The translations under genes and the position numbers were made by a program. A stretch of 45,972 bases of DNA, from positions 1 to 45,972 of the forward strand of contig NZ_KI518074.1 in NCBI RefSeq assembly GCF_000479045.1, written 5' to 3'. Origin of the DNA: Cetobacterium somerae ATCC BAA-474. GTDB lineage: Bacteria > Fusobacteriota > Fusobacteriia > Fusobacteriales > Fusobacteriaceae. The notes beneath the pieces are model-generated. The model saw only the letters and a list, made by a program, of their open reading frames with translations. It was not told the DNA's origin and made no database searches. This document shows positions 1,963 through 44,137 of the stretch, one piece after another. Numbering within the stretch: position 1 is the first letter of the stretch; each line of letters opens with the position of its first letter.

Positions 1963-3392
1963 TATCTATTTTTTAATAAACTTTTTCCTGGAATTCCTGG
2001 TTTTGTCATTTCAAAAGGATTTAAAATTATATCTAACTCCTCTTTTGTTAACAATTTTCTTTCTAAAATTAAATCTACCACTGAAACTCCTGTCTTTATA
2101 GATGTTTTTGCTATATCTGCTGCATTTTTGTATCCTATATGTGGATTCAAAGCTGTTATTGTTCCAACACTCATATCAACTAATTGCTGACATCTCTCTT
2201 TATTTGCTGTAATTCCAATTAAACAATTATCTATTAAAGTATTAACTCCATTCTTTAAAATTTCTATCGATTGGAATAAGTTAAAGAACAATACTGGTTC
2301 AAATACATTTAGCTCTAACTGACCTGCTTCTGCTGCTTTTGTTACTGTCTGATCATTTCCAAATATTTGGAAACAAACTTGGTTCATTACTTCAGGAATT
2401 ACTGGATTTACTTTTCCAGGCATTATTGAAGATCCTGGCTGTTGTTGAGGTAAATTAATTTCTGCTAATCCTGTTTTTGGTCCTGATGCCATTAATCTTA
2501 AATCATTTGCCATTTTTGATAAATTTACAGCAGCTACTTTTAATGCTGAAGATAACCATACAAAACTATCTAAATTTCTTGTTCCATCAACTAAGTCATC
2601 AGCTTGAACAAAATCAACATTAGTTACCTCAGACAAAATTCTAACAACATCCTCTACATACTTTGTATCAGCATTAATTCCTGTTCCTACTGCAGTTGCT
2701 CCCATATTAACTGTTTTTAAATCTTCCAAAGCTATCTTTATTCTCTTTATATCTCTAGCTATTGGTTGTGCATAAGCTTTAAACTCTTGTCCTAATCTAA
2801 TTGGCACTGCATCTTGAAGGTGTGTTCTTCCCATTTTTATAACATTATCAAACTCTATACTTTTATCTAACAAAGTTAAATTTAATCTTTCTAAAGTTTT
2901 TAATAACTCTTCTGACATCATTTGTAAAGCTAATTTTCCTGCAGTTGGAATTACATCATTTGTAGATTGTCCATAATTTACATGATCATTTGGATGAACT
3001 TTATCATATTTCCCAAGTTCTCCTCCTAGTAACTCTCCTGCTCTATTAGCAATTACTTCATTCATATTCATATTCATTGATGTTCCTGCTCCACCTTGAA
3101 TAACATCAGTTATAAACTGATCCATAAATTTACCATCTATTATCTCTTCAGAAGCTTTAACTATAGCATTTACAACATCCTCGTCCAGCATTCCTGCTTC
3201 TAAGTTTGCTATAGCTGAGGCTTTCTTTACATATGCTAAAGCTTTAATAAAATCATTTCCTAATTTATACCCCGTAATATGGAAATTATTTTTCCCTCTT
3301 AATGATTGAACTCCATAATAAGCCTCTGCTGGAACTTGTATTGTTCCAATAGAATCACTTTCTAATCTAAACTTTTCCAATTCTTTCACCAT
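1962..3392 (-). CDS. aspA: Aspartate ammonia-lyase
   Basis: Reversibly deaminates L-aspartate to fumarate and ammonia in the cytoplasm. The 476 residues cover the whole fumarase/aspartase superfamily fold. Visible signatures are GGAGTS near residue 103, NYGQSTND near 140, and the flexible catalytic loop GSSIMPGKVNP near 320. The LESDSIGTIQVPAEAYYGVQ start is typical of aspartases and separates it from class II fumarase, which is closely related; a fumarase role is less likely. The gene has its own promoter and sits downstream of a GntR-type regulator on the same strand. In an anaerobe this enzyme would feed amino-acid-derived fumarate into fermentation. Confidence 0.93.
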   Translation of the reverse strand: MVKELEKFRLESDSIGTIQVPAEAYYGVQSLRGKNNFHITGYKLGNDFIKALAYVKKASAIANLEAGMLDEDVVNAIVKASEEIIDGKFMDQFITDVIQGGAGTSMNMNMNEVIANRAGELLGGELGKYDKVHPNDHVNYGQSTNDVIPTAGKLALQMMSEELLKTLERLNLTLLDKSIEFDNVIKMGRTHLQDAVPIRLGQEFKAYAQPIARDIKRIKIALEDLKTVNMGATAVGTGINADTKYVEDVVRILSEVTNVDFVQADDLVDGTRNLDSFVWLSSALKVAAVNLSKMANDLRLMASGPKTGLAEINLPQQQPGSSIMPGKVNPVIPEVMNQVCFQIFGNDQTVTKAAEAGQLELNVFEPVLFFNLFQSIEILKNGVNTLIDNCLIGITANKERCQQLVDMSVGTITALNPHIGYKNAADIAKTSIKTGVSVVDLILERKLLTKEELDIILNPFEMTKPGIPGKSLLKNR

Positions 3393-3470
3393 CCCTTTAT
3401 TTTCCCCAGAACATAAAACATCAAACTATAAAACTTTATTTTCATTTTATTCTTTTTTGAAAATAAACAT

Positions 3471-3496
3471 TTCGTTCTTTATTCGTTCATTCGTGC
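3471..3496 (-). promoter_or_regulatory. Tandem TTCGTTC-type direct repeats downstream of the aspA promoter
   Basis: Three near-identical heptamers, read on the plus strand as TTCGTTC (3471-3477), TTCGTTC (3482-3488) and TTCGTGC (3490-3496), lie just downstream of the aspA -10 box. They could be an operator, with the adjacent GntR protein as the obvious candidate ligand. GntR sites are usually palindromic, so the assignment is tentative. Confidence 0.4.
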
Positions 3497-3509
3497 TTTT
3501 ATGTTTTAA

Positions 3510-3537
3510 AGTATACTGTTTTTTTTATAAAAGTCAA
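3510..3537 (-). promoter_or_regulatory. aspA promoter
   Basis: On the minus strand, -35 TTGACT (3532-3537) and -10 TATACT (3510-3515) are separated by 16 bases. They lie about 120 bases before the aspA start. Confidence 0.75.
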
Positions 3538-3555
3538 GTGTTTTTTATGGATTTT

Positions 3556-4266
3556 TTATTTTAACAATATAAAAGTGTCATCTTTAGTTACTTCTTCTTT
3601 TACCTCAAAATATTCTGGATTCTCAGCTTCTAATTTTTTCAATTTTAGAAGAGTTCTTCCTAGGTGATGTTCTAACATTCCTCTTAATTTATCTATATCT
3701 TTTTTTTCCAAGGCCTCTAAAATTTCCTCATGCTCTTTAACAACTGATATATCACTTGTTTTATTTTTAGCGTTTAGAACTCTTACTCTTTGATAATGAC
3801 CTGTTCCATTTAATGCTAATTCCCACAATCCTGGAATTCCAGCTTTTTCAAAAATCATCTTATGAAAATCATTATCCATTTTATGAAACTCTAGATAATT
3901 ACGGTTTCCCTCACAATAAACCCTTTGCATCTTTATATTTGTTCTTAAATCCTCTATAAATTCTTCATCTAAAGCTTCAATAACTCTTTCAAAAGCTGCA
4001 GTTTCTAAGGCAACTCTCAACACTTTTGCTTCTAAAACTTTTTGAGCGCTAATTTTTGTTACAAATGTTCCTTTTTGTGGAATACTTTCAATCAGTTGAT
4101 CATGCTTTAATAATATCAAAGCTTCTCTAATAGGAGTTCTACTCATTCCCAATTTTTCACCTATTACTTTTTCACTTAATTCACTTCCAGGTTTTAAATT
4201 TAATTCAAATATATTTCTTTTTAATATTTTATATGCGTAAGCTGAGTTACTATTTTCTCTTGACAT
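3556..4266 (-). CDS. GntR-family transcriptional regulator (FCD subfamily)
   Basis: DNA-binding regulator of 236 residues. The N-terminal winged helix spans about residues 5-70, with the conserved LKPGSELSEKVIGEKLGMSR helix-turn-helix followed by TPIREAL and GTFV. The rest (about 80-220) is an all-helical FCD-type ligand domain, with HKMDNDFHKMIF and the late HEEILEALEKKD and EHHLGRTL helices that usually hold a metal and an organic acid ligand. Because aspA follows directly, an organic acid or amino acid such as aspartate or fumarate is a plausible effector, but that is inference from position only. It has its own promoter. Confidence 0.9.
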   Translation of the reverse strand: MSRENSNSAYAYKILKRNIFELNLKPGSELSEKVIGEKLGMSRTPIREALILLKHDQLIESIPQKGTFVTKISAQKVLEAKVLRVALETAAFERVIEALDEEFIEDLRTNIKMQRVYCEGNRNYLEFHKMDNDFHKMIFEKAGIPGLWELALNGTGHYQRVRVLNAKNKTSDISVVKEHEEILEALEKKDIDKLRGMLEHHLGRTLLKLKKLEAENPEYFEVKEEVTKDDTFILLK

Positions 4267-4316
4267 TTTTCCTCCTCGTTTATTTTTTCACATTTAATTT
4301 TAAATAATATATCTTT

Positions 4317-4345
4317 ATAATAAAATATACTAGTTAGTTTGTCAA
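4317..4345 (-). promoter_or_regulatory. Promoter of the GntR-type regulator gene
   Basis: Minus strand -35 TTGACA (4340-4345) and -10 TATTAT (4317-4322) with a 17-base spacer, a near-consensus sigma-70 promoter. The gene also has a good ribosome site (GAGGAGG). Confidence 0.8.
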
Positions 4346-4360
4346 ACTCAATATTTCAAC

Positions 4361-4393
4361 AAAAAAAATAGAGGTGATATACACCTCTATTTT
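4361..4393 (-). terminator. Terminator after cdd
   Basis: Minus-strand hairpin AAAATAGAGGTG / CACCTCTATTTT with a 5-base loop and a following T run. It ends the deoB-deoD-cdd transcript before the GntR gene promoter. Confidence 0.88.
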
Positions 4394-4396
4394 CAA

Positions 4397-4801
4397 TTAA
4401 AGTTCAAATCCATATGGTAATAATTCTTCCATTGTCATTAGTTTATAATCTCTTTTTAGATTTCCTAAGATGATTATTGTATCATCATCTGCAAACTCTT
4501 TTATAACCTGTCTACATGCTCCACAAGGACTTACTGGTCCTGTTGTGTCCGCAACTACAGCTATTAACTTTATTTTTCTCATACCTTTACTTGCCGCTGC
4601 AAAAACTGCACTTCTTTCAGCACAGTTAGAAAGTCCATATGATCCATTTTCAATATTAGCACCTGAAGTTTCATTTCCATTTTCATCTACTAATACTGCT
4701 CCAACTTTAAATTTTGAATAAGGAGCATAGGCATTCTCTCTAGCAACAATAGCTTTATCTACATATTCTAAAATTAACTTTTCATTCAATTCTTTTTTCA
4801 T
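4397..4801 (-). CDS. cdd: Cytidine deaminase
   Basis: Deaminates cytidine and deoxycytidine to uridine and deoxyuridine in pyrimidine salvage. The length of 134 residues matches the short homotetrameric type. The zinc site is visible as NCAERSAVFAAASKG (Cys plus catalytic Glu) and PCGACRQVIKEF (two Cys ligands). NAYAPYSKFKVGAVL near the N-terminus is the usual substrate-binding segment. It starts four bases after the deoD stop, so it is the last gene of a deoB-deoD-cdd unit and ends at a strong terminator. Confidence 0.96.
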   Translation of the reverse strand: MKKELNEKLILEYVDKAIVARENAYAPYSKFKVGAVLVDENGNETSGANIENGSYGLSNCAERSAVFAAASKGMRKIKLIAVVADTTGPVSPCGACRQVIKEFADDDTIIILGNLKRDYKLMTMEELLPYGFEL

Positions 4802-4805
4802 ATTA

Positions 4806-5510
4806 TTACTCCGCTACACTTTCTAATGCTATTTCAATCATATCTGTTAAAGTTGTTTGTCTTTCTTGAGATGTTGTTTCTTCACCAGTAACCAAAGAAT
4901 CTGAAATCGTTAATATCGTCAAAGCTTTTGCATTATATTTTGCTGCTATTGTATACAGTGCTGCTGTTTCCATCTCAACACAAAGCACACCAAACTCTGC
5001 CCATTTTTTATACGATTCAAAATTGTCTCCATAGAACTCATCTGCAGTTAAAACATTTCCACCTTTAACTTCTATTCCTTTTGCCTTTGCAGCTTCAGCT
5101 GCCTTCATAAACAGTCCAAAATCTGCTGTTGGTGCATAATCTGCCCCTCCAAATCTCAATCTATTCATTCCTGATGTTGTTGATGATGACATAGCTAATA
5201 TTACATCTCTTATTTTAACATCTTCTCTATAAGATCCTGCTGTTCCAACTCTAATTAGATTTTTTACTCCATACTCCCTAATTAATTCATTAACATATAT
5301 TGAAATTGATGGAACTCCCATTCCTGTTCCCTGTACAGAAACTCTTTTCCCTTTATAAGTTCCTGTATATCCATACATTCCTCTAACTTCATTATAACAA
5401 ACTACATCTTCTAAAAAAGTTTCTGCTATCCATTTAGCTCTTAATGGATCTCCTGGTAATAATACTGTTTCTGCTATTTCTCCTTTTTTTGCTCCTATAT
5501 GTACGCTCAT
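4806..5510 (-). CDS. deoD: Purine nucleoside phosphorylase, DeoD type
   Basis: Phosphorolyses purine (deoxy)nucleosides to free base plus (deoxy)ribose-1-phosphate. The 234-residue length and the sequences [25 protein letters not shown] and [10 protein letters not shown] are those of the hexameric DeoD class rather than the trimeric PNP or uridine phosphorylase. The final SDSLVTGEE contains the catalytic Asp of this class. The product is passed to DeoB, encoded 21 bases upstream, and cdd follows four bases downstream; the three genes form one catabolic operon. Confidence 0.95.
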
Positions 5511-5531
5511 TTTACCCTCCTAGTTTTCCTT

Positions 5532-6713
5532 TTATTTTATAATTTTATCAGCAAAACTTCCTTTTAAATTAGTTTTTCCTAATAAAAGATCTTCTACAGT
5601 TGCTGCTATTGTTGAGAATCCATTTTGAATTCCTAAATCAACGTTTTCTTTTAACTTCTTTCCATATACTAATAATGGAATATACTCTCTTGTATGATCA
5701 CTACCTTTATAAGTTGGATCACATCCATGATCTGCTGTTAATATAAGAAGTTCATTCTCTTTTAAATTTTCCATAATTTCTGGAAGATAATTATCAAACT
5801 CTTCTAAAGCTAATTTATAACCTTTTGGATCTCTTCTATGTCCATACTTCATGTCAAAATCAACTAAATTTGTAAATATAATTCCTTTTGTATCTTTTTT
5901 TAATTCTTCAATAGTTTTTAAAATTCCATCTAAATTATCTTTGTTAGTTCCTCTACTTTCAGTTATTCCTACTCCAGCAAATATGTCACTAGTTTTTCCA
6001 ATTCCAATAACATCTAAACCAGAATTTTTAACTCTATCTAGCATACTCTCAATTGGTGGCTCAACTGAATAGTCATGTCTATTAGACGTTCTTACAAACT
6101 CTCCAGCTTTCTTACCAGTATAAGGTCTTGCAATAACTCTTGCCACAGGAGATAAGTCACTACAAATTTCTAAAGCTTTTTTACAAGCTGAATAAAGTTC
6201 ATCTAAAGATATCATCTCTTCATTAGCAGCTATTTGAAACACTGGATCAGCTGATGTGTAGACAATCCAAGCCCCTGTTGCTAATTGCTCCTCTCCATAT
6301 ACATCTAAAACATCTGTTCCAGAGTATGGTAAGTTACAAAGCACTTTTCTTCCTGTTGCCTTTTCAAACGCTTCTATTGTTTCTTTTGGAAAACCATTTG
6401 CATAAGTTGGAAATGCTTTTTCTTGAACAATTCCAGCAATTTCCCAGTGTCCTGTCGTCGTATCTTTTCCCTTCGAAAGTTCAGCTGCTTTTCCATATGC
6501 ACCTTTTGCATTCTCAACTTCATCTACACCTAAAATTTCTGTAATATTACCTAATCCTAGCTGCTCCATGTTTTTTAAATTTAATCCACCTGTTGCAAGA
6601 GCTATATTTCCCAATGTATTTGTTCCTTCATCTCCAAACTCTTTTGCATCTGGTAAAGCCCCTATTCCAGCACTATCTAGCACTATTAAAGTAACTCTTT
6701 CTATTTTTTCCAT
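5532..6713 (-). CDS. deoB: Phosphopentomutase
   Basis: Interconverts (deoxy)ribose-1-phosphate and -5-phosphate, linking nucleoside breakdown to central metabolism. The 393 residues are full length for this alkaline-phosphatase-superfamily enzyme. Metal ligands and the active-site Thr are in DSAGIGALPDA (about residue 13), GKDTTTGHWE (about 85), and TADHGCDP with the following SDHTREY near the C-terminus. It lies directly after the binding-protein gene, with a weak terminator between the two, and upstream of deoD and cdd. Confidence 0.95.
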   Translation of the reverse strand: MEKIERVTLIVLDSAGIGALPDAKEFGDEGTNTLGNIALATGGLNLKNMEQLGLGNITEILGVDEVENAKGAYGKAAELSKGKDTTTGHWEIAGIVQEKAFPTYANGFPKETIEAFEKATGRKVLCNLPYSGTDVLDVYGEEQLATGAWIVYTSADPVFQIAANEEMISLDELYSACKKALEICSDLSPVARVIARPYTGKKAGEFVRTSNRHDYSVEPPIESMLDRVKNSGLDVIGIGKTSDIFAGVGITESRGTNKDNLDGILKTIEELKKDTKGIIFTNLVDFDMKYGHRRDPKGYKLALEEFDNYLPEIMENLKENELLILTADHGCDPTYKGSDHTREYIPLLVYGKKLKENVDLGIQNGFSTIAATVEDLLLGKTNLKGSFADKIIK

Positions 6714-31149: not shown

Positions 31150-31336
31150 CTTTCACTTCCTACCTAAACTCTATACTTTCTAAACAAAATTATATCACAA
31201 GTTATTTTCTATTACAAAATTATTACTCAAAAAAAAAGAAATCTATTTTTTTGGAGTATATATGTTACAGAATGGTAAAATTATTAATTCCATTTTTAAT
31301 TTTAGGAGATTAATTAAAACGAGGAGGTTTATTTTT

Positions 31337-32050
31337 ATGAAAAAATTAACACTTTTAGCATGTTCTTTATTCGCTTTTGCTGCTGTTGCTCAAGCAAAAG
31401 AAGTGGCTGCTCCTGTTACAAGTTCTAAAGAAGTTGTAGCTGAGCCTGTTATTATTGAAGAAGTTGTTGTAGCTCCTGTTGTTGAAAACCCTTGGGGATT
31501 TATTAACTTAAGAGCTGGATGGGATTTCTGGAGTGAATACGGAAACTTCAACAGACATGAAAATTATGACACTAATCTTTCTAAGAAAACTAAAGATTTT
31601 GGTGGAGAGTTAGCTATTGAAGCTTACAAATCTTGGGACTACTTTGATTTAGGTCTTGGTGTTGCTTATCAGCATCATATGAAAAGAAAATCTACTGATA
31701 ATGTTTCTGGAGCAGAGTTCTCTTCAGTTCCAGTTTATGTAACTGGTAGATATGATATCAACTACTGGGATTGGGCTGCAACTCCATATATTAAAGCTAA
31801 CGTTGGTTACTCATTTAACTTTAATTCAAAAGATGTTGATGGACCAGACTTTAGCTATGGTACAAAAGTTGACGATGGATTATATTGGGCAGCTGGTGTT
31901 GGAGTTCAATATGAGGACTTTAACGTAGATATCCTTTATGGTGCTAACTATGCTAAAACTAAAGTTAGTGACGGTCCAGACAGTATGAAATTCGATAACG
32001 ACTATGAGAGAGTTACTCTTTCTGTAGGTTATAGATTCAATATCTGGTAA
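31337..32050 (+). CDS. Outer-membrane beta-barrel protein
   Basis: Secreted protein of 237 residues. A clear signal peptide (Lys-rich start, then a hydrophobic core ending VAQAKE) is followed by a proline- and valine-rich linker with repeats such as EVVAEPVIIEEVVVAPVVE, then alternating hydrophobic beta strands rich in Tyr and Trp. It ends YRFNIW, a terminal aromatic typical of outer-membrane proteins recognised by BamA. I take ATG 31337 as start: GAGGAGG at 31321-31327 is correctly spaced. An upstream in-frame ATG at 31262 would put 25 unrelated residues before the signal peptide. A strong terminator follows. Confidence 0.85.
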   Translation: MKKLTLLACSLFAFAAVAQAKEVAAPVTSSKEVVAEPVIIEEVVVAPVVENPWGFINLRAGWDFWSEYGNFNRHENYDTNLSKKTKDFGGELAIEAYKSWDYFDLGLGVAYQHHMKRKSTDNVSGAEFSSVPVYVTGRYDINYWDWAATPYIKANVGYSFNFNSKDVDGPDFSYGTKVDDGLYWAAGVGVQYEDFNVDILYGANYAKTKVSDGPDSMKFDNDYERVTLSVGYRFNIW

Positions 32051-32068: not shown

Positions 32069-32106
32069 AAAAGGAGATAACTAATAGTTATCTCCTTTTT
32101 CTTTTA
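32069..32106. terminator. Bidirectional terminator between the OMP gene and the encapsulin gene
   Basis: Perfect 12-bp stem AAGGAGATAACT / AGTTATCTCCTT with a 3-base loop and flanking A and T runs on both sides. Confidence 0.92.
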
Positions 32107-32892
32107 TTATTTATAGCTTATAACTCTCGTATTATCTAATACTCTAAATGTAAATGTTTCTGTTATAAATAACTCCACTTCTTGATTTGTATGTCCTTGA
32201 TACCCTAAAGAAAAATCTTCTCCTAATACAAGCTCAATATTTTCATTATCATAAGGAACTAATAATCCTCCAGTTATACTATTTGAAACTATTATTGGCA
32301 TCCCTAATATCTTTTCTAATCTTTTTGCTAACGAATCATTTAAATTTACCATATTTAAATATATAAATTTTTCAAGACCTACAACTAATGCATAAGGTCC
32401 TTTACTAAATCCTGTATTTCTTAATTTTGAAACTCCGTACATTAAATTTTTTATTGTTTCTTGTTCTGTTTTTCCAAAATCTAAAGCTTGTTTTTCATCT
32501 TTTAACAACCCTACTATACAAGCTTCATCTAATCCAAAATATACTGCCTCTTCTTCAAATTTAGCTGCATTTTTCAAAGCTTCATCTAAATTTGTATAAT
32601 CAATATCTCTAGCTCCTCTTTCAAAATTGTCTAATTCCCATCTACTTAACTTAAAAGTTATTCTATTTTCTACGAAAGGTTGTGTTTGATAAACACCGTA
32701 ACTTAAATCACCTTTTTTATGTATTGCTAATCTTCCTGTATTTACTCCACCTTTTTCTTTTCCAATAGGTCCTGTTACTCTTACAAATCTTCTAGCTGAT
32801 AACTGAGTTGTTAAAACCTCTTTTGCTCTTTCCTCTATATCTTTCCAAACTTTCCCACTAATTGGTGCTAATTCTTTTTTTAGAAAATCCAT
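32107..32892 (-). CDS. enc: Encapsulin shell protein (family 1)
   Basis: Self-assembling nanocompartment shell with an HK97 fold, 261 residues. The start MDFLKKELAPISGKVWKDIEE, then RRFVRVTGPIGKEKGG, and the later YALVVGLEKF and EDFSLGYQGH, are hallmarks of the linocin-M18/encapsulin family; the ending FRVLDNTRVISYK is typical. It lies 11 bases after the gene for an encapsulated ferritin-like protein that carries a targeting peptide, so the pair is a complete iron-storage compartment. Shell size cannot be read from sequence. Confidence 0.95.
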   Translation of the reverse strand: MDFLKKELAPISGKVWKDIEERAKEVLTTQLSARRFVRVTGPIGKEKGGVNTGRLAIHKKGDLSYGVYQTQPFVENRITFKLSRWELDNFERGARDIDYTNLDEALKNAAKFEEEAVYFGLDEACIVGLLKDEKQALDFGKTEQETIKNLMYGVSKLRNTGFSKGPYALVVGLEKFIYLNMVNLNDSLAKRLEKILGMPIIVSNSITGGLLVPYDNENIELVLGEDFSLGYQGHTNQEVELFITETFTFRVLDNTRVISYK

Positions 32893-32903
32893 ATTATTCC
32901 TCC

Positions 32904-33269
32904 TTATCCTTTTAATGAACCTATATTTAATGATTTTACATCTGCTACTACTTCACTGCTTCCTGAATTTTGCTCATTTCCACCATTTCTTCCCATTAAT
33001 TGAGCTTCTATTCCTACAATTTTTCCCTGTCTAAATATATAATCTTCCATCTCTTTTCCGAATTCAAATTGATTTCTTCTTAGCCATTCAACTATCATAA
33101 CAGCATGCTCCATCTCTTCATTTCTATTATGAATCATAATTTCTTTAAGTTCAGGATCTACTGCCATTTCAGCTCTTTGGTTATAATCATCCACTGCCTG
33201 TAGCTCCTCCTTTAAACTTTGTATTGCATAGTCTAAATCTGTAGCTTTTTTACTAATTCCATCTAACAT
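32904..33269 (-). CDS. Encapsulated ferritin-like cargo protein (EncFtn)
   Basis: Half-ferritin of 121 residues that forms its ferroxidase site at a dimer interface. The helical part (residues 1-95) contains EELQAVDDYNQRAE and NRNEEMEHAVMIVEWLRR, with the ligands Glu34 and the E52xxH55 pair. A flexible Gly/Ser/Asn-rich linker follows, then the short C-terminal SLNIGSLKG, the type of peptide that docks cargo in the shell. Known relatives oxidise Fe(II) and pass it into the encapsulin lumen. It is transcribed with the shell gene. Confidence 0.93.
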   Translation of the reverse strand: MLDGISKKATDLDYAIQSLKEELQAVDDYNQRAEMAVDPELKEIMIHNRNEEMEHAVMIVEWLRRNQFEFGKEMEDYIFRQGKIVGIEAQLMGRNGGNEQNSGSSEVVADVKSLNIGSLKG

Positions 33270-33525
33270 ATTTCCTACACCTCCACATAATAAAATACTC
33301 TTTTAATTTTATTATGTCTTTTCTCTATTTTTCCTTCTTTAATTTTTTATTTATCTAATTTTTAAATTTACAATCCAAATAATAACTGAGTTTTAGAAAA
33401 TTTGAAATATAGATAAGTATAGTTTTTTTTGGTATCATATTAATATAGTATTGTTTTTTATAAGGGTTCTTTTAAATGTTTAGCTTTTTTTATTTTTTAT
33501 TTAATTTCTAGAAAGGTCGGGGGAC

Positions 33526-34122
33526 ATGACTATGATTGAAAAAGAAGATATAATTTTAGCACAAAACGGAGATGAAGAATCAATTGAAAAAATTATCAAA
33601 GAGTATCAAGGAGCAATCTATAAAAATAATCGTTCATTTTTTCTTAAAGGTGGAGATAGTGACGATTTAATGCAAGAAGGATTAATAGGTCTTATTAAAG
33701 CTATTAAATCTTACGACGAAACTAGGAACGCGTGTTTTAGTACTTTTGCAAATCTTTGTATTAGAAGACAAATGATTACAGCTGTTAAAAATCATAACTC
33801 TGATAAATACAAAAATCTAAATCTTGCAATGCAAGGTGAAGGTTATTCTGCACAAGAGGAAAGTATTCATTACTCGCGTCCTTCTCTAGGATTTTATTCA
33901 CCTGAAGATATCTTTTTAGGTAAAGAGTTAGTTAATCTTCTAACTGGTTTCCTTGAAGAAAATCTAAGTACTCTAGAGAAAAAAGTTTTTACGTATTTAT
34001 GCAAAGAGTATACTTATGTTGAGATTGCTGATTTTTTAAATGAACCTCCAAAAAAAATAGACAATACTATTCAAAGAATTAAAAAGAAAATTTTAACTTA
34101 TCTGGGTTCTTACTCAAAGTAA
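33526..34122 (+). CDS. Sigma-70 family RNA polymerase sigma factor (SigH-like)
   Basis: The 198 residues contain region 2 (about 10-85: DDLMQEGLIGLIKAIKSYD, then FSTFANLCIRRQMITAVK) and region 4 (about 140-192: LSTLEKKVFTYLCKEYTYVEIADFLN, then KKIDNTIQRIKKK). This most resembles the sporulation sigma-H group of low-GC bacteria, although sporulation is not expected here. The start ATG 33526 has AAAGG ten bases upstream, with a G-rich run in between. It is divergent from the encapsulin operon across a 256-base gap, and nothing near it identifies its regulon. No anti-sigma gene adjoins it. Confidence 0.88.
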   Translation: MTMIEKEDIILAQNGDEESIEKIIKEYQGAIYKNNRSFFLKGGDSDDLMQEGLIGLIKAIKSYDETRNACFSTFANLCIRRQMITAVKNHNSDKYKNLNLAMQGEGYSAQEESIHYSRPSLGFYSPEDIFLGKELVNLLTGFLEENLSTLEKKVFTYLCKEYTYVEIADFLNEPPKKIDNTIQRIKKKILTYLGSYSK

Positions 34123-43765: not shown

Positions 43766-44137
43766 TTAATTACTCCATAACCCGTGAATATTACAATATT
43801 CTCTTGCACATACTGATTTCCCCTTAGGTACTTTAAAATATGCTTCAGGCGCTTCCCCTGGCTTTAAATATTTTCTATATAAAAAGTCATCTACACAGAT
43901 TTCTATCATTTGAATATAATGCTCTTCTGTCATAGGATGAGCCATCTCTTTACCAACTTTTACTAAATATCCATCCTCTTTTTCCTCAACAAATGGAACA
44001 TGTTTTTCTGTTGATGCATCTTGAGTCTTCTCTTTTACCAATTCTAATCCTTCTACAGAAACACCATCTTTATCTGCTACAATTACCTCTAATAATACTG
44101 GGTTTTCTTTCACTTTAAAAATTTCATAAACTTTCAT
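43766..44137 (-). CDS. Superoxide reductase with cysteine-free N-domain (class III type)
   Basis: Reduces superoxide to hydrogen peroxide without making oxygen, a defence suited to anaerobes. The 123 residues end in a complete catalytic domain: TEKHVPF (Glu44, Lys45, His46), AHPMTEEHYIQ (His67, His73) and AREYCNIHGLW (Cys115, His118), the Fe(His4Cys) ligands. Residues 1-40 align with the desulforedoxin domain (EIFKVKENP, then LELVKEKTQDA), but all four iron-binding cysteines are missing. This matches the class III pattern known from Treponema pallidum. It lies between perR and rubredoxin. Confidence 0.92.
   Translation of the reverse strand: MKVYEIFKVKENPVLLEVIVADKDGVSVEGLELVKEKTQDASTEKHVPFVEEKEDGYLVKVGKEMAHPMTEEHYIQMIEICVDDFLYRKYLKPGEAPEAYFKVPKGKSVCAREYCNIHGLWSN

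What the first reader, a model, noticed from the sequence alone, without database searches (positions are those of the whole stretch)
32107..33269. Complete encapsulin and encapsulated-ferritin iron compartment in a likely Fusobacteriota genome
Cargo with a C-terminal targeting peptide (SLNIGSLKG) and shell gene lie 11 bases apart. The operon is divergent from a lone sigma factor gene of unknown regulon. The iron store would complement the PerR/superoxide reductase defence encoded 10 kb away.
Basis: partly seen in the sequence, partly recalled or inferred. Interest (0 to 1): 0.55.

Follow-up and report, generated by a model that had tools for sequence, protein, structure and literature searches.

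The report
Iron-storage protein shell in Cetobacterium
A Cetobacterium genome carries an ordinary two-gene iron-storage nanocompartment found across its bacterial family, with a promoter that hints, untested, at control by an alternative sigma factor.

Summary
The two genes are real. A Family 1 encapsulin shell (32107-32892, -) lies 11 bases behind an encapsulated-ferritin (EncFtn) cargo gene (32904-33269, -) ending SLNIGSLKG. The nearest named records are Cetobacterium (Fusobacteriota). It is a known kind: all 25 of 98 Fusobacteriota genomes with a full-length shell have EncFtn directly before it, and 24 of 26 cargo tails fit the targeting-peptide form. The ferroxidase ligands are all kept; entry-site residue E34 and neighbouring W38 are replaced in all 11 Cetobacterium copies.

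It stands beside the operon in 10 of 11 Cetobacterium genomes, is broken in 2 of those 10, and was not seen beside it in other genera. Yet EncFtn promoters share an AGGA box in 24 of 26 copies (7 of 8 genera), enriched over control promoters. In 4 copies it makes a full SigH-type promoter (AGGA-N17-GAAT); in 6 Cetobacterium copies, this window included, the -10 reads TAAT. SigH-type control is plausible; control by the adjacent gene is not shown. PerR and superoxide reductase lie 10.5 kb away with no detected link. Interest: low to moderate.

The parts
32107..32892 (-). Family 1 (classical) encapsulin shell protein, 261 aa
   Evidence: Pfam PF04454 6.7e-67; NCBIfam encap_f1 over cut-off; best solved relatives are Thermotoga maritima encapsulin entries ('Maritimacin'), 1.5e-48, aligned 1-257
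32904..33269 (-). EncFtn cargo, 121 aa; ferroxidase ligands E22, Y29, E52, H55; putative exit site H47, E51, E54; entry site E21 kept, E34-equivalent is Q24, W38-equivalent is D28
   Evidence: Pfam PF22277 1.2e-30; alignment to R. rubrum EncFtn 5da5, offset +10; residue roles from PMC5012862; residue counts
32907..32933 (-). C-terminal targeting peptide SLNIGSLKG (stop codon 32904-32906)
   Evidence: in G000 the strict CLP DNA pattern has 3 matches and this is the only one that ends an EncFtn or any long ORF
33278..33286 (-). ribosome-binding site GTGGAGGTG of encFtn, conserved in at least 10 of 11 Cetobacterium copies
33311..33335 (-). candidate SigH-type promoter of the encFtn-enc operon: -35 AGGA (33332-33335), 17 nt, -10 TAAT (33311-33314)
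   Evidence: prediction only, no transcript data
33396..33414 (+). conserved block GAAAATTTGAAATATAGAT, probably part of the sigma gene's own promoter or operator
   Evidence: conserved where the sigma gene is adjacent, degraded in L025 where it is absent
33526..34122 (+). SigH-like alternative sigma factor, 198 aa, divergent from the operon; not shown to belong to the system
   Evidence: NCBIfam SigH-type models 1.8e-41 to 8e-37, all below their cut-offs; Pfam Sigma70_r2 9.9e-13; paralogues
32069..32099 (-). stem-loop between the convergent outer-membrane-protein gene and the operon; a 14-pair stem. T-rich tail is on the + strand (outer-membrane-protein side); on the operon's strand the tail is weaker

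Best explanation
This is a classical (Family 1) encapsulin operon of the EncFtn type. Inferred from relatives, not shown here: the shell protein assembles into a closed icosahedral shell, EncFtn subunits dock inside through SLNIGSLK, oxidise Fe(II) at a di-iron centre formed between two subunits (E22, Y29, E52, H55) and release Fe(III) to mineralise in the lumen. Shown here: both genes, the tail, the conserved ligands, and strict pairing of the two genes across 25 Fusobacteriota genomes. The metal entry site is partly eroded in Cetobacterium (Q or I for E34, D for W38), so iron access or oxidation rate probably differs from the Rhodospirillum rubrum protein. Transcription probably starts at an AGGA-N17-TAAT promoter read by a SigH-type sigma factor; whether that is the adjacent paralogue is open.
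For: Family matches, solved relatives of both proteins, one-to-one pairing of shell and EncFtn in 25 of 98 genomes, targeting-peptide form in 24 of 26 tails and ferroxidase ligands in 26 of 26 copies, genus-consistent shell and cargo trees, AGGA box in 24 of 26 copies and its enrichment.
Against: No expression, assembly or activity data. The -10 element fits in only 10 of 26 copies at the 17-nt spacing. The g5 genomes have no AGGA box, look sigma-70-like instead, and have divergent tails. The promoter motif was noticed by eye before it was tested; the k-mer ranking was done to correct for that. Genes next to other sigma paralogues are not enriched for the box (7 of 76 against 12 of 191).
Confidence: 0.93

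Rival explanations
1. The operon is controlled by the housekeeping sigma factor, possibly with a Fur or PerR-type regulator, and the AGGA box is a site for something else or an inherited neutral stretch.
For: In g5 the EncFtn promoters look like sigma-70 promoters (TTGACA/TTGACT ... TATATT; sequences). Several -10 regions are TATAAT-like (L023, L024).
Against: AAAGGA is the top 6-mer against 251 AT-rich control promoters (6 of 8 genera, p 1.15e-6 before correction for 569 k-mers). AAGGAAA and the ribosome-binding site are the longest conserved runs in the operon-proximal part of the Cetobacterium promoter. No Fur-like site in the window; 26 PerR-like sites with up to 3 mismatches against 33.9 expected, none between 32255 and 36310.
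Confidence: 0.35
2. The adjacent sigma factor is a dedicated regulator of the encapsulin operon in Cetobacterium.
For: Divergent and adjacent in 10 of 11 copies; a precedent exists: RpoH-like sigma genes are conserved in enterobacterial DyP encapsulin operons (PMC12140327, passages read); the Cetobacterium -10 (TAAT) differs from the g4 form (GAAT), which could reflect a different reading sigma.
Against: Broken by a frameshift in G006 and by an IS200/IS605-type element in G010 with the operon intact, replaced by an unrelated 473-aa gene in G012 where the AGGA box persists, and not adjacent in other genera whose operons have the same box. Paralogues could substitute.
Confidence: 0.2
3. The shell-like gene is a prophage capsid and not an encapsulin.
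For: Encapsulins share the HK97 fold with phage capsids; PF04454 does match two phage head proteins in this survey (L028, L030).
Against: Full-length match to the encapsulin model and to T. maritima encapsulin, cargo gene with targeting peptide, no phage genes among the neighbours. The two phage proteins match only part of the model and have a PHROG major head protein match.
Confidence: 0.01

Closest known systems
Encapsulated ferritin (EncFtn) systems of Rhodospirillum rubrum, Haliangium ochraceum and Nitrosomonas europaea (PDB 5da5, 7oe2, 3k6c)
   Same: Cargo sequence family, ferroxidase ligands E32/Y39/E62/H65, exit-site residues H57/E61/E64, C-terminal targeting peptide
   Different: E34 and W38 equivalents replaced in Cetobacterium; AGGA-type promoter; divergent SigH-like gene in 10 of 11 Cetobacterium copies
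Thermotoga maritima Family 1 encapsulin shell (PDB 3dkt, 7kq5 and variants)
   Same: Best-matching solved shell, 1.5e-48 to 4e-46, full length
   Different: Sequence level only; shell size (T number), flavin binding and pores were not examined here
Enterobacterial DyP encapsulin operons with an RpoH-like sigma gene (PMC12140327)
   Same: A sigma factor gene beside a Family 1 encapsulin operon
   Different: Peroxidase cargo, RpoH-like and not SigH-like, part of the conserved gene set; passages read only

Membership tests
Family 1 encapsulin | Shell protein of the Linocin_M18/encapsulin family | tested here: met
Family 1 encapsulin | Primary cargo gene directly upstream of the shell gene | tested here: met
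   11-base gap; 26 of 26 copies have EncFtn directly before the shell
Family 1 encapsulin | C-terminal targeting peptide on the cargo | tested here: met
   SLNIGSLKG here; the pattern fits 24 of 26 tails, not the two of g5
Family 1 encapsulin | Assembly into an icosahedral shell that holds the cargo | not testable with these tools
   needs expression and electron microscopy
EncFtn cargo | EncFtn-like fold family match | tested here: met
   PF22277 over cut-off; TIGR04535 below its cut-off, 114 against 125 bits
EncFtn cargo | Di-iron ligands E32, Y39, E62, H65 | tested here: met
   26 of 26 copies, numbering, roles
EncFtn cargo | Entry site E31 and E34 | tested here: inconclusive
   E31 in 26 of 26; E34 in 10 of 26, Q or I in 11 of 11 Cetobacterium. 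Not known to be a requirement for membership
EncFtn cargo | Decameric ring and ferroxidase activity | not testable with these tools
   needs biochemistry
SigH (Spo0H) regulon promoter | -35 AGGA, 17-18 nt, -10 GAAT | tested here: inconclusive
   Full form in 4 of 26 copies (g4) against 5 of 459 control promoters; AGGA-N17-(G/T)AAT in 10 of 26 against 6 of 459; in this window the -10 is TAAT
SigH-type sigma factor (33526-34122) | Match to SigH models | tested here: inconclusive
   best matches are SigH models, 1.8e-41, but below every curated cut-off

The most novel reading that the evidence does not exclude
Across Fusobacteriaceae the EncFtn-encapsulin iron store is expressed from a SigH-type promoter, so iron compartment building is tied to an alternative sigma factor and not to Fur or PerR; in Cetobacterium a SigH paralogue has settled divergently beside the operon and both its -10 sequence (TAAT) and the cargo's metal entry site have changed in the same lineage.
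Probability: 0.3. Interest if true: 0.5.

Novelty: new member of a known kind. Interest (0 to 1): 0.3.

Why it matters
It extends a well-studied iron compartment to a phylum in which the held literature says almost nothing about it. It offers two cheap tests: natural variants at the disputed EncFtn entry site, and an AGGA-type promoter that would put an iron store under an alternative sigma factor.

Tried and rejected
Prophage capsid: rejected for the window gene; it is what two extra PF04454 matches in the survey are. Secondary cargo: a degenerate DNA pattern for the targeting peptide in 12 Cetobacterium genomes gave 23 matches; 11 are the EncFtn tails, and of the other 12 none ends a long reading frame; the exact SLNIGSLK in G005:C3 is internal to a non-coding frame. 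Viral contigs: no relative of the shell. Self-regulation of the sigma paralogues by the same box: not seen (3 of 42 upstream regions). Genome-wide search for a stricter SigH-type pattern in 61 family genomes gave modestly more matches than the reversed control and included all four g4 encapsulin promoters, but no clear regulon was worked out. PerR and Fur boxes: no support (both consensus patterns are recalled). A simple two-block regular expression for the promoter was weak (4 of 26 against 6 of 251) because the spacer was first set wrongly; it was replaced by the spacing from PMC12456013. Replacement of classical ferritin by encapsulin: no sharp trade-off across the phylum. Structure prediction was not run: the homology is close enough that it would not change the verdict.

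Correction to my own notebook: entry 1 says the sigma gene is divergent in '11 of 12' Cetobacterium; the right count is 10 of 11 copies (L002 and L003 are second fetches of G011 and G013).

Full report
WHAT IS THERE. The window holds two adjacent genes on the minus strand. The downstream one (32107-32892, 261 aa) is a Family 1 encapsulin: Pfam Linocin_M18 6.7e-67 over the whole model, NCBIfam 'family 1 encapsulin nanocompartment shell protein' 219 bits against a cut-off of 100, and a full-length match to solved Thermotoga maritima encapsulin chains (1.5e-48). The upstream one (32904-33269, 121 aa) is an encapsulated ferritin: Pfam EncFtn-like 1.2e-30; the NCBIfam ferrit_encaps model gives 3.4e-33 but stays under its cut-off, 114 against 125 bits. 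The gap is 11 bases and the cargo ends ...KSLNIGSLKG, aligned with the tail of a solved encapsulated ferritin-like chain, SLGIGSLKG. The nearest named records are two uncultured Cetobacterium MAGs, so 'likely Fusobacteriota' is right. This is far beyond chance.

DISTRIBUTION. In 98 Fusobacteriota genomes PF04454 matches 26. One of these (G084) and a second match in G053 are 301-aa proteins with only a partial match and are PHROG major head proteins; I dropped them. That leaves 25 genomes with 26 full shells (G044 has two). PF22277 matches 25 genomes with 26 copies, the same ones, and every EncFtn gene lies directly before a shell gene, gaps 2 to 33 bases with ORF starts as called. 11 of 12 Cetobacterium genomes have it; the one without (G014) is 82% complete. 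In family f4, 0 of 33 genomes have it. Shell and cargo trees both put each genus together, with 7 label changes for 8 groups, the least possible; the cargo tree has long branches and should not be read further. Four genera share neighbours: a nagB gene in g2, g4 and g13, nagA in g2 and g13, an integrase-type gene and a pseudouridine-synthase-like gene in g2, g4, g8 and g13 (nagB and nagA named, the integrase; the synthase name is my reading). This speaks for an old family trait with losses and moves; Cetobacterium carries it beside proS instead. No tree with other phyla was made, so the ultimate origin is not tested.

CARGO CHEMISTRY. Aligned to R. rubrum EncFtn (5da5, offset +10) and with residue roles taken from PMC5012862 (passages read), the di-iron ligands E32, Y39, E62 and H65 are present in 26 of 26 copies, as are E31 and the putative exit residues H57, E61 and E64. 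E34 is present in 10 of 26; it is Q in 10 and I in 1 of the 11 Cetobacterium copies, D in all 4 g4 copies, and I in one g9 copy. W38 is present in 9 of 26; it is D in all 11 Cetobacterium copies, V in g4, F in g11, R in one g9 copy. PMC5012862 proposes E31/E34 as an iron entry site, and PMC11202242 proposes another site (passages read). A paper on mutants of this site (Piergentili 2020) is cited there but is not held. Whether the Cetobacterium changes speed up or slow down iron oxidation is open.

TARGETING PEPTIDE. The form (S/T)LxxGx(L/M/I)K fits 24 of 26 tails; the two g5 copies end SD(D/N)IFLK. In 12 Cetobacterium genomes a degenerate DNA pattern for the peptide found the EncFtn tail in all 11 genomes that have the operon and no other long protein that ends with it, so no second cargo of this exact form is seen.

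SIGMA FACTOR. The divergent gene (33526-34122) is SigH-like; SigH models are its best matches but all are below their cut-offs. It is not lone: the same search gives 8 matches in this genome and 1 to 15 in the 12 Cetobacterium genomes, with close paralogues at 55 to 74% identity scattered as single genes; the counts include more distant sigma genes. Most Fusobacteriota outside f4 have a copy, often in a murA-like, rlmB-like, sigma, leuS-like order, names by my reading. The copy beside encapsulin is 85 to 100% identical among Cetobacterium where whole and stands beside the operon in 10 of 11 copies. In G006 it has a frameshift near its end and in G010 it is cut by sequence with a TnpB gene; assembly error cannot be excluded for G006. 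In G012 a 473-aa gene without a Pfam or PHROG match stands in its place. In the 8 stretches of 8 to 11 kb that I read for the 7 other genera it is not present.

PROMOTER. Upstream of encFtn an AGGA box stands at -60 to -99 in 24 of 26 copies, that is in 7 of 8 genera and not in g5. A stricter form, (A/G)NAGGA(A/T)3 at -110 to -50, is in 22 of 26 against 47 of 459 control upstream regions and 26 of 251 AT-rich ones. Because I saw the box before testing it, I ranked all k-mers by the number of genera that hold them: AAGGA, AAAGGA and AAAAGGA come first of 385, 569 and 714 (p 1.8e-5, 1.15e-6, 1.67e-7 before correction). The copies share ancestry, so these are not independent draws. PMC12456013 (passages read) gives SigH promoters as AGGA, 17-18 nt, GAAT. 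All four g4 copies fit this exactly (4 of 26 against 5 of 459 controls); AGGA-N17-(G/T)AAT is in 10 of 26 against 6 of 459, and 17 is the clear peak among spacers 8 to 27 (10 copies, next best 4). Here the sites are 33332-33335 and 33311-33314. The remaining copies have other, mostly AT-rich -10 regions. In L025, without the sigma gene, the AGGA box stays while the block at 33396-33414 near the sigma gene decays, which assigns the first to the operon and the second to the sigma gene.

Encapsulin occurs only in genomes with a good SigH-like match (E below 1e-30: 25 of 59 genomes; 0 of 39 without; counted by hand), but this follows family lines and proves little.

IRON AND OXYGEN CONTEXT. Superoxide reductase and a PerR-like regulator are in the window about 10.5 kb away. 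No PerR-like site lies in the promoter and the window has fewer such sites than shuffles (26 against 33.9); no Fur-like site was found. In PF00210 searches, strong ferritin matches (130 bits or more, counted by hand) occur in 5 of the 25 encapsulin genomes and in none of the 11 Cetobacterium ones. This genome has three weaker matches: a Dps-like protein (below the model's cut-off) and a rubrerythrin (over it) were named; the third was not looked at. So EncFtn is the only dedicated ferritin-type store that I found besides Dps.

LITERATURE. Two searches of the held library, 'encapsulin' with 'Fusobacteri' and with 'Cetobacterium', gave two passing co-mentions and none. PMC8346489 reports Family 1 encapsulins in 31 phyla (passages read); its list of phyla is in a figure not held, so I cannot say that Fusobacteriota is missing there. 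A sigma gene beside an encapsulin operon has a precedent, RpoH-like, in enterobacterial DyP systems (PMC12140327, passages read).

VERDICT. An ordinary, complete EncFtn-encapsulin system, a new member of a known kind. The part worth a specialist's time is the promoter and the changed entry site, both predictions.

Noticed in passing
L073-L112: SigH-like sigma factors are expanded in Cetobacterium and some other Fusobacteriaceae, as single genes beside unrelated genes (for example a YjjI-like glycyl radical enzyme in L094), with broken copies and copies next to a transposase-like gene (L102, L103).
   Followed up: partly
L069:3396-4817, L079:5725-7095, L079:12268-13686, L099:4576-6093: Proteins of 456-505 aa without a Pfam match lie near several SigH paralogues, and one of them replaces the sigma gene beside the encapsulin operon in G012. 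They look like regulators to the eye; their relatedness was not tested.
   Followed up: partly
L026, L027 (g5): Encapsulin operons whose cargo tail is SD(D/N)IFLK instead of SLNIGSLK-like, with a sigma-70-like promoter and the most divergent shells. The docking site may have changed.
   Followed up: no
L068 (G044), 3229-4365 and 4652-5817; L008: G044 has two shell and cargo pairs; the second cargo has I and R at the E34 and W38 positions, and a 378-aa frame with an EncFtn-like start lies just before the first pair.
   Followed up: no
window 43766-44137: The superoxide reductase matches the desulfoferrodoxin model below its cut-off and its ferrous-domain model above; no cysteines are seen in its N-terminal part, so it may be of the one-iron type.
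   Followed up: no
window 31262-32050 and neighbours: Small outer-membrane proteins weakly like FomA (3.1e-06, below cut-off) lie convergent to the operon in most Cetobacterium copies, sometimes in tandem (L015, L021, L025).
   Followed up: no
L040:80-568: TnpB (IS200/IS605-type) gene piece next to the interrupted sigma gene of G010.
   Followed up: partly
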